From Thermus igniterrae ATCC 700962 (GTDB lineage Bacteria; Deinococcota; Deinococci; Deinococcales; Thermaceae), in assembly GCF_000376265.1 (NCBI RefSeq), contig NZ_AQWU01000057.1, forward strand, positions 1-42,385: a stretch of 42,385 bases of DNA, in the 5' to 3' direction. Below, in pieces: positions 38,778 to 38,871 of the stretch; within the stretch, counting starts at the first letter, position 1; each line of letters begins with the position of its first letter. Below the pieces are notes generated by a model. It did no database searches, was not told where the DNA came from, and worked only from the letters and a program-made list of their open reading frames with translations. The position numbers were made by a program, and so were the translations under genes.

Positions 38778-38783
38778 TACAAT
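38778..38783 (+). promoter_or_regulatory. -10 box (TACAAT), metG
   Basis: Four bases after the rpiA stop and seven before the seven-residue ORF. Transcripts from here must pass the hairpin at 38796-38860 to reach metG. Confidence 0.65.
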
Positions 38784-38790
38784 CCCTTCC

Positions 38791-38814
38791 ATGAAGGGCA
38801 TGCCCCGGGGCTAG
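38791..38814 (+). CDS. Putative seven-residue Met-containing leader peptide before metG
   Basis: The frame encodes MKGMPRG and then TAG. Its ATG lies exactly seven bases after TACAAT, the same spacing as leaderless genes elsewhere in the window. Two of seven codons are Met, counting the initiator. The ORF is embedded in the 5' arm of a long hairpin followed by seven Ts, just ahead of methionyl-tRNA synthetase. That is the arrangement of a transcription attenuator, but only one internal Met codon makes a chance ORF possible. Confidence 0.45.
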   Translation: MKGMPRG

Positions 38815-38860
38815 GGCGGGGAGGCTTTTCCCCGCCCGGGGCGCATGCCCCGGTTTTTTT
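38796..38860 (+). terminator. Terminator/attenuator hairpin in the metG leader
   Basis: Inner 9-bp stem GGGCGGGGA/TCCCCGCCC (38814-38822 with 38829-38837). Outer arms GGGCATGC/GCATGCCC (38796-38803 with 38843-38850) add eight pairs plus three across a one-base bulge. A run of seven Ts (38854-38860) follows. It may simply end rpiA, but it also lies downstream of the metG -10 box. Confidence 0.8.
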
Positions 38861-38871
38861 GAGGAGGGCGC

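What the first reader, a model, noticed from the sequence alone, without database searches (positions are those of the whole stretch)
38778..38871. metG leader: Met-containing mini-ORF inside a terminator hairpin
A TACAAT -10 box just after rpiA is followed seven bases later by an ORF, MKGMPRG. Its codons form the 5' arm of a two-part hairpin ending in seven Ts. Then comes GAGGAGGG and metG. If this box is the metG promoter, every metG transcript must read through a terminator whose outer stem is covered by a ribosome translating Met codons. That is a minimal attenuator for methionyl-tRNA synthetase, without a T-box or SAM riboswitch. The alternative is that the hairpin only ends rpiA. No antiterminator pairing was found.
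Basis: partly seen in the sequence, partly recalled or inferred. Interest (0 to 1): 0.68.

Follow-up and report, generated by a model that had tools for sequence, protein, structure and literature searches.

The report
Met-codon attenuator before methionyl-tRNA synthetase gene
In front of the gene for methionyl-tRNA synthetase, Thermus and its relatives carry a tiny gene beginning at the predicted first base of the mRNA, and a ribosome held up at its methionine codon very likely decides whether transcription continues, so cells probably make more of the enzyme when charged methionine tRNA runs short.

Summary
Observation confirmed. TACAAT (38778-38783) lies 7 nt before MKGMPRG* (38791-38814), then a hairpin, a compact terminator with T7, a Shine-Dalgarno sequence and metG.

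It is not chance. TANNNT-(6-8 nt)-RTG AAG GGN ATG CCN occurs once per genome in 25 of 27 Thermus genomes, always before metG. Equivalent leader ORFs of 7-27 codons precede metG in 79 of 97 Deinococci genomes examined.

There is one: hairpin B (38814-38837), whose 3' arm uses the base of the terminator's 5' arm. Its start lies 9-12 nt after an internal Met codon in 62 of 74 leaders (10.9 expected), close to the ribosome's downstream footprint. Outside Thermus one base covaries with both its antiterminator and terminator partners. In folding models of the window leader, the terminator is suppressed with a ribosome at Met4 and forms once it moves on.

Best reading: a ribosome-mediated transcription attenuator for MetRS, run by a leaderless leader peptide. 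In models the naked Thermus leader is also antiterminated, so failed initiation might switch metG on. New variant of a known kind (precedents: S. meliloti Trp, mycobacterial Cys); no published Met case found in the library searched. No transcript data; the element is missing or damaged in some species.

The parts
38778..38783 (+). -10 box TACAAT (TANNNT). The distance to the start codon predicts a transcript beginning at or within a base or two of the ATG (leaderless); no clear -35
   Evidence: spacing to RTG is 6-8 nt in 70 of 78 leaders; spacer length conserved, sequence not. TSS not mapped.
38791..38814 (+). Leader ORF MKGMPRG*, predicted leaderless; start codon also a Met codon
   Evidence: 25 Thermus leaders all MKGMPxx*, only synonymous changes in codons 2-5, start ATG/GTG, stop always TAG
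38800..38802 (+). Regulatory Met codon (codon 4)
   Evidence: ends 11 nt before hairpin B; an internal Met codon is present in every leader tabulated
38796..38806 (+). ORF arm GGGCATGCCCC that pairs with 38838-38850 in the naked RNA and keeps the terminator from forming (modelled)
   Evidence: naked P(terminator) about 0; no compensatory changes seen, two species carry a mismatch
38814..38837 (+). Antiterminator hairpin B (GGGCGGGGAG-GCUU-UUCCCCGCCC, 10 bp); its 3' arm takes the first two bases of the terminator's 5' arm
   Evidence: equivalent hairpin in all 74 leaders folded
38836..38853 (+). Intrinsic terminator stem-loop CCGGGGC-GCAT-GCCCCGG
38854..38860 (+). T7 tract of the terminator
38861..38868 (+). 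Shine-Dalgarno sequence GAGGAGGG of metG
38872..40734 (+). metG, methionyl-tRNA synthetase, the regulated gene
Evidence: related proteins at 85-92% identity in the other Thermus genomes.
38091..38774 (+). rpiA, upstream neighbour, probably not part of the switch
   Evidence: next to metG throughout most of Thermaceae, not detected upstream of metG in the other families that keep the leader

Best explanation
This is a ribosome-mediated transcription attenuator of metG. Transcription starts at or next to the ATG of a 7-codon leaderless ORF (inferred from -10 spacing). When Met-tRNA is plentiful the ribosome passes the Met codon at position 4, reaches the stop, and covers the 5' arm of hairpin B. 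The terminator just before the metG Shine-Dalgarno then forms and transcription stops. When charged Met-tRNA is scarce the ribosome waits at Met4, with its leading edge just short of hairpin B. B forms, takes the bases at the foot of the terminator's 5' arm, and RNA polymerase reads on into metG. If the ribosome never starts, for want of fMet-tRNA, the ORF itself pairs with the terminator region and metG is also read through. Shown here: conservation of ORF, promoter spacing, Met codon, antiterminator, terminator and their geometry. Modelled: the dependence of terminator formation on ribosome position. Inferred: the transcription start, translation, and the response to methionine or Met-tRNA.
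For: (a) Specific and conserved: one copy per genome, before metG only, in 25 of 27 Thermus. A covariance model of 21 non-Thermus leaders finds 39 loci in 111 genomes, all 39 within 400 nt upstream of metG on the same strand, one per genome. (b) Leaderless coding ORF: TANNNT-6..8-RTG in 70 of 78 leaders; peptides of 7-27 codons stay in frame with a start next to the -10 box. (c) An internal Met codon is found in every leader; Arg before it is common but not universal. (d) Geometry: the antiterminator begins 9-12 nt after a Met codon in 62 of 74 leaders against 10.9 expected for random codons; genus-weighted 19.35 of 24 against 3.47, 0 of 100,000 simulations; the hairpin was located without using Met. 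In Thermus both Met and hairpin moved towards the stop and kept the 11-nt gap. (e) Mutual exclusivity: alignment column 61 covaries with column 24 (antiterminator, CG14/UA5/UG2) and column 94 (terminator, GC14/AU5/GU2); double changes at 9 of 12 antiterminator pairs. (f) Model for this window: P(basal terminator pairs) 0.07 with the ribosome at Met4 and 0.98 one codon later at 37 C, 0.16 to 0.96 at 60 C, footprint 10 nt. (g) No T-box or SAM riboswitch at metG, although Thermus genomes hold one of each elsewhere.
Against: No transcript, ribosome-profiling or starvation data. In most Thermus the antiterminator/terminator overlap is only 2 nt, so the predicted switch is weaker than in the other genera (2-4 nt). 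The modelled switch codon depends on the assumed footprint: good at 9-11 nt, one codon early at 12. Some leaders show no modelled switch (L022, L035, L038, L176, L178). Two Thermus genomes lack hairpin B (L008, L009), two lack the leader (L015, L023), and family f4 (Marinithermaceae-like) mostly lacks it. Thermus sequences alone are too similar for strong covariation. Equilibrium folding ignores cotranscriptional kinetics.
Confidence: 0.8

Rival explanations
1. The hairpin is simply the rpiA terminator; the mini-ORF is incidental, and metG is expressed by readthrough or from another promoter.
For: rpiA lies directly upstream in most Thermaceae, and the terminator would stop rpiA transcripts.
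Against: The same ORF-antiterminator-terminator unit precedes metG in other families without rpiA detected there. The ORF shows synonymous-only change and fixed promoter spacing. Only 11 nt separate the T-run from metG, too little for a promoter after it.
Confidence: 0.05
2. The leader peptide is an arrest peptide that senses something else (an antibiotic, SAM or a translation factor) rather than Met-tRNA charging, using the same antiterminator.
For: MKGMP is invariant in Thermus except in the sister genus, and R-M(-M) is common elsewhere, more than a single Met codon needs.
Against: The residues around Met differ between families (GMP, RMM, SMP, TMQ, QMP). Met is the one shared sense codon, and the gene is always MetRS.
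Confidence: 0.08
3. Translational control: the leader ORF feeds ribosomes to metG by reinitiation, or the hairpin gates the Shine-Dalgarno sequence.
For: In Thermus the Shine-Dalgarno sequence immediately follows the T-run. One Meiothermus-group leader (L032) has no stop and runs into the metG start. Short leader genes close to structural genes were proposed to aid reinitiation (PMC4833913).
Against: In Meiothermus and others the Shine-Dalgarno sequence lies tens of nt beyond the T-run, so SD gating cannot be the conserved function. The stop-to-metG distance is about 57 nt in the window. U-tracts are conserved, which points to transcription.
Confidence: 0.05
4. A constitutive, unregulated partial terminator that merely lowers metG expression.
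For: Terminator strength is high in all species. Species without hairpin B or without the leader are viable.
Against: This does not explain the fixed Met-to-antiterminator distance or the three-way covariation.
Confidence: 0.02

Closest known systems
Classical ribosome-mediated transcription attenuators of amino-acid operons and tRNA synthetases (trp, his, leu leaders; pheST)
   Same: Short leader ORF with codons for the relevant amino acid, antiterminator and terminator as alternative pairings, ribosome position decides.
   Different: Amino acid is Met, also the start residue; only 7 codons with one internal regulatory codon; ORF predicted leaderless; in models the untranslated Thermus leader is antiterminated instead of superattenuated; target is metG. 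No Rfam leader family matched.
Leaderless polycysteine ORF attenuators of mycobacteria (Canestrari 2020, cited in PMC13236596 and PMC9031893; first proposed in PMC4633059)
   Same: Leaderless short ORF upstream of a gene of the matching amino acid's metabolism, proposed or shown to act as an attenuator.
   Different: Cysteine, a run of codons, another phylum; here one or two Met codons, with a conserved antiterminator and intrinsic terminator. The primary paper was not held in the library.
S. meliloti trpL / rnTrpL attenuator (PMC7298713)
   Same: Leader RNA 5' end starts at the ATG of the leader ORF; ribosome-dependent transcription attenuation.
   Different: Trp, 14 codons, biosynthetic gene, proteobacterium.
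T-box riboswitch (RF00230)
   Same: Senses tRNA charging and is common in front of tRNA-synthetase genes; each Thermus genome has one elsewhere.
   Different: No T-box at metG; sensing here is through a ribosome, not direct tRNA binding.
SAM riboswitch (RF00162)
   Same: Methionine-linked control, one in 26 of 27 Thermus genomes, elsewhere.
   Different: Not at metG; no aptamer in the leader.

Membership tests
Ribosome-mediated (leader peptide) transcription attenuator | Translated short leader ORF | tested here: met
   Coding-type conservation and frame kept across 7-27 codon variants; translation itself not measured
Ribosome-mediated (leader peptide) transcription attenuator | Regulatory codons for the amino acid handled by the controlled gene | tested here: met
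   Internal Met codon in every leader tabulated, at a fixed distance from the antiterminator
Ribosome-mediated (leader peptide) transcription attenuator | Mutually exclusive antiterminator and intrinsic terminator | tested here: met
   (three-way covariation outside Thermus); overlap only 2 nt in most Thermus
Ribosome-mediated (leader peptide) transcription attenuator | Terminator formation depends on ribosome position | tested here: inconclusive
   Supported in partition-function models, with exceptions and dependence on the footprint
Ribosome-mediated (leader peptide) transcription attenuator | Readthrough rises when the cognate charged tRNA falls | not testable with these tools
   Needs RNA 3'-end mapping under starvation
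Leaderless short-ORF attenuator (mycobacterial Cys type) | Transcript starts at the ORF start codon | tested here: inconclusive
   -10 box 6-8 nt before the start in 70 of 78, the leaderless signature described for Deinococcus-Thermus (PMC3160421); 5' end not mapped
Leaderless short-ORF attenuator (mycobacterial Cys type) | Run of consecutive regulatory codons | tested here: not met
   One internal Met in Thermus; at most a Met-Met pair elsewhere
T-box riboswitch | Match to RF00230 | tested here: not met
   No T-box at metG in the window or in sampled leaders; present elsewhere in the genomes
SAM riboswitch | Match to RF00162 | tested here: not met
   the one copy per genome lies elsewhere

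The most novel reading that the evidence does not exclude
A leader that senses initiator as well as elongator Met-tRNA. Because the ORF is leaderless and its start codon is itself a Met codon, failure to initiate leaves the naked leader in an antiterminated fold, so both lack of fMet-tRNA and a wait at Met4 switch metG on. This inverts the superattenuation of classical attenuators. Support: naked P(terminator) is below 0.1 in 19 of 23 Thermus leaders, mean 0.06 against 0.40 when the ORF part is shuffled, and leaderless initiation is reported to be unusually sensitive to fMet-tRNA (PMC9031893). Weak points: no covariation for the ORF arm, and the effect is weaker in Meiothermus (naked mean 0.46 against 0.66 shuffled).
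Probability: 0.3. Interest if true: 0.85.

Novelty: new variant of a known kind. Interest (0 to 1): 0.72.

Why it matters
Met is the awkward amino acid for leader-peptide attenuation, because every ORF starts with it. A conserved system that uses it, in a class where many mRNAs are leaderless, would show that attenuation can work with a single internal codon in a 7-codon ORF at high temperature. It gives a specific regulator for an essential synthetase and a natural test of whether leaderless initiation senses fMet-tRNA. The Thermus RNA polymerase and ribosome are standard purified systems, so the switch could be rebuilt in vitro.

Tried and rejected
Rfam at E<=1 gave only chance-level hits and gathering thresholds gave none in the leaders. 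Simple sigma-70 scanning found no promoter because there is no clear -35. A z-score of the whole leader fold was uninformative (-1.1). Covariation within Thermus alone was not used as evidence: the sequences are too similar and the ORF arm shows mismatches. The exact modelled switch codon was tested but not relied on, since it moves with the footprint; the Met-blind distance test was used instead. The primary papers on mycobacterial Cys attenuators (PMC8764745) and the D. deserti transcriptome (PMC4007540) are not held. Literature searches for a Met leader peptide found none.

Full report
WHAT IS THERE. The window is a contig of a Thermus genome (named relatives). Between rpiA and metG lie, in order: TACAAT (38778-38783), a 7-nt spacer, ATG AAG GGC ATG CCC CGG GGC TAG (38791-38814, MKGMPRG*), a 10-bp hairpin B (38814-38837), a compact terminator CCGGGGC-GCAT-GCCCCGG (38836-38853) with T7 (38854-38860), GAGGAGGG (38861-38868) and metG at 38872. 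Hairpin B and the terminator share 38836-38837.

IS IT MORE THAN CHANCE. The pattern TANNNT-N5-9-RTGAAGGGNATGCC was searched in all 27 Thermus genomes held. It occurs once in each of 25, in every case in front of metG, and the reversed control gives zero. In 25 Thermus leaders codon 2 is always AAG, codon 3 GGC/GGG/GGT, codon 4 always ATG, codon 5 CCC/CCT, the start ATG (20) or GTG (5), and the stop always TAG, while codons 6 and 7 vary widely and the length never changes. That is the signature of a translated ORF. The spacer between -10 box and start keeps its length but not its sequence.

BEYOND THERMUS. I took the DNA upstream of metG from the 111 genomes held for the phylum; 97 upstream regions could be read. 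By my count a leader of this kind precedes metG in 79 of them: 25 of 27 Thermus, its sister genus (L031, MKGMRTS*), all 22 other Thermaceae (21 with a normal stop), and 31 of 47 genomes in four other families. Examples: MVGYWFTRMMRKTRR*, MIWRMMQVGPVPG*, MASRMLNTRPVSD*, MKRGFFSWRMPRSALRP*. The -10 box lies 6-8 nt before the start codon in 70 of 78 leaders, the spacing described as the mark of leaderless genes in Deinococcus-Thermus (PMC3160421). Peptide length varies from 7 to 27 codons, yet the start stays beside the -10 box and in frame. An internal Met is the sense codon all share; Arg before it (CGA AUG) is common but not universal. A covariance model made from 21 non-Thermus leaders finds 39 matches in 111 genomes, one per genome, all within 400 nt upstream of metG.

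THE MISSING ANTITERMINATOR. The RNA between the internal Met codon and the terminator folds, in all 74 leaders tested, into a hairpin whose 3' arm takes in 2-4 bases at the base of the terminator's 5' arm. The gap between the Met codon and this hairpin is 11 nt in 21 of 23 Thermus, 9-12 nt in 20 of 21 other Thermaceae, and mostly 9-12 elsewhere, although Met is 4, 7, 8 or 9 codons from the stop in different groups. To avoid bias I located the hairpin without using Met: 62 of 74 leaders have a Met codon 9-12 nt upstream against 10.9 expected for random codons; weighted by genus, 19.35 of 24 against 3.47, never reached in 100,000 simulations. About 10-12 nt is the stretch a ribosome covers downstream of its A site (PMC4833913 uses 12 nt after the stop codon).

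COVARIATION. In an alignment of 21 non-Thermus leaders the antiterminator has double changes at 9 of 12 pairs and 79% paired cells against 69% in shuffles, and the terminator 95.9% with double changes at 3 pairs. One column (61) pairs with column 24 in the antiterminator (CG14, UA5, UG2) and with column 94 in the terminator (GC14, AU5, GU2). All three columns change together, as expected if the same base is used in two alternative structures. Related sequences inflate such counts; the slide controls are clearly lower. The MAFFT alignment is imperfect for divergent rows.

MODEL OF THE SWITCH. I masked the RNA under a ribosome (A-site codon plus 10 nt) and computed the probability of the basal terminator pairs. 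For the window leader it is 0.00, 0.06, 0.07 and 0.07 at codons 1-4 and 0.98 at codon 5 at 37 C, and 0.16 at codon 4 to 0.96 at codon 5 at 60 C. Across 73 unique leaders, 63 show a jump of at least 0.3; it falls exactly on a Met codon in 33 against 7.8 expected, and within one codon in 44 (37 C, footprint 10). Many of these are near-identical Thermus leaders, and a footprint of 12 nt shifts the switch by one codon, so I treat this as consistency rather than proof.

NAKED LEADER. Without a ribosome the ORF arm (38796-38806) pairs with 38838-38850 and the terminator probability is near zero. In Thermus the mean is 0.06 against 0.40 with the ORF part shuffled, and only 7% of shuffles go as low. 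This suggests that failure to initiate also gives readthrough, the reverse of superattenuation in enterobacterial attenuators. It would suit a MetRS regulator, because fMet-tRNA is made by the same enzyme, and leaderless initiation is reported to be strongly enhanced by fMet-tRNA (PMC9031893). This part is a hypothesis.

WHY NOT THE ALTERNATIVES. The unit stays with metG in families where rpiA was not detected upstream, so it is not just the rpiA terminator, though it may serve as that too. There is no T-box or SAM riboswitch at metG; Thermus genomes have one of each elsewhere. Gating of the Shine-Dalgarno cannot be general because in Meiothermus it lies tens of nt beyond the U-tract. An arrest peptide sensing another signal remains possible.

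WHAT IS KNOWN. Ribosome-mediated attenuators with leader peptides are textbook. Leaderless leader ORFs are known for S. meliloti trpL (PMC7298713) and for polycysteine ORFs of mycobacteria (PMC4633059; Canestrari 2020 cited in PMC13236596). Searches for a Met or MetRS leader peptide found none, with the limit that most subscription papers are not held. Hence 'new variant of a known kind'.

LIMITS. Nothing here measures transcription, translation or the response to methionine. The element is absent or damaged in some species (L008/L009 lack hairpin B; L015, L023 and most of family f4, Marinithermaceae-like, lack the leader), so it is useful but not essential. Call numbers refer to tool outputs; statements on classical attenuators without a citation rest on general knowledge.

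Noticed in passing
L008 and L009 (two Thermus genomes; L008 corresponds to the T. brockianus record L059): Both have lost hairpin B by a short deletion (stop codon TAG runs straight into GGGGCGCATGCCCC) while keeping promoter, ORF and a shorter terminator: natural mutants for testing the switch.
   Followed up: partly
L032 (G041, Meiothermus-like): The leader ORF has no stop before metG; it reads through the hairpins (MHGCARFRMARRPLAV...) and ends at a TGA that overlaps the metG start, as in coupled ORFs.
   Followed up: no
L140, L141, L159, L160 (family f4): These genomes lack the attenuator, and metG itself appears leaderless (TAGAAT or TAAAAT about 7-8 nt before ATG).
   Followed up: no
L023 and L015: In L023 rpiA runs almost directly into metG (19 nt) with no leader; in L015 the leader is lost and rpiA is no longer upstream.
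   Followed up: no
Alignment A1 columns 4-9 and the leaders: Outside Thermus the codon before the regulatory Met is usually CGA (CGAATG invariant or nearly so in the aligned set); why this Arg codon is kept is unexplained.
   Followed up: no
G000:C70:78280-78513 (own genome, another contig): The single T-box of the genome lies about 1.6 kb upstream of a weak MetRS-like hit in a 1090-aa frame, probably another class I synthetase such as ileS.
   Followed up: no
window 40747-40772: A strong terminator-like hairpin (11 bp) follows metG, between it and the convergent S41-type protease gene at 40794-42149 on the minus strand.
   Followed up: no
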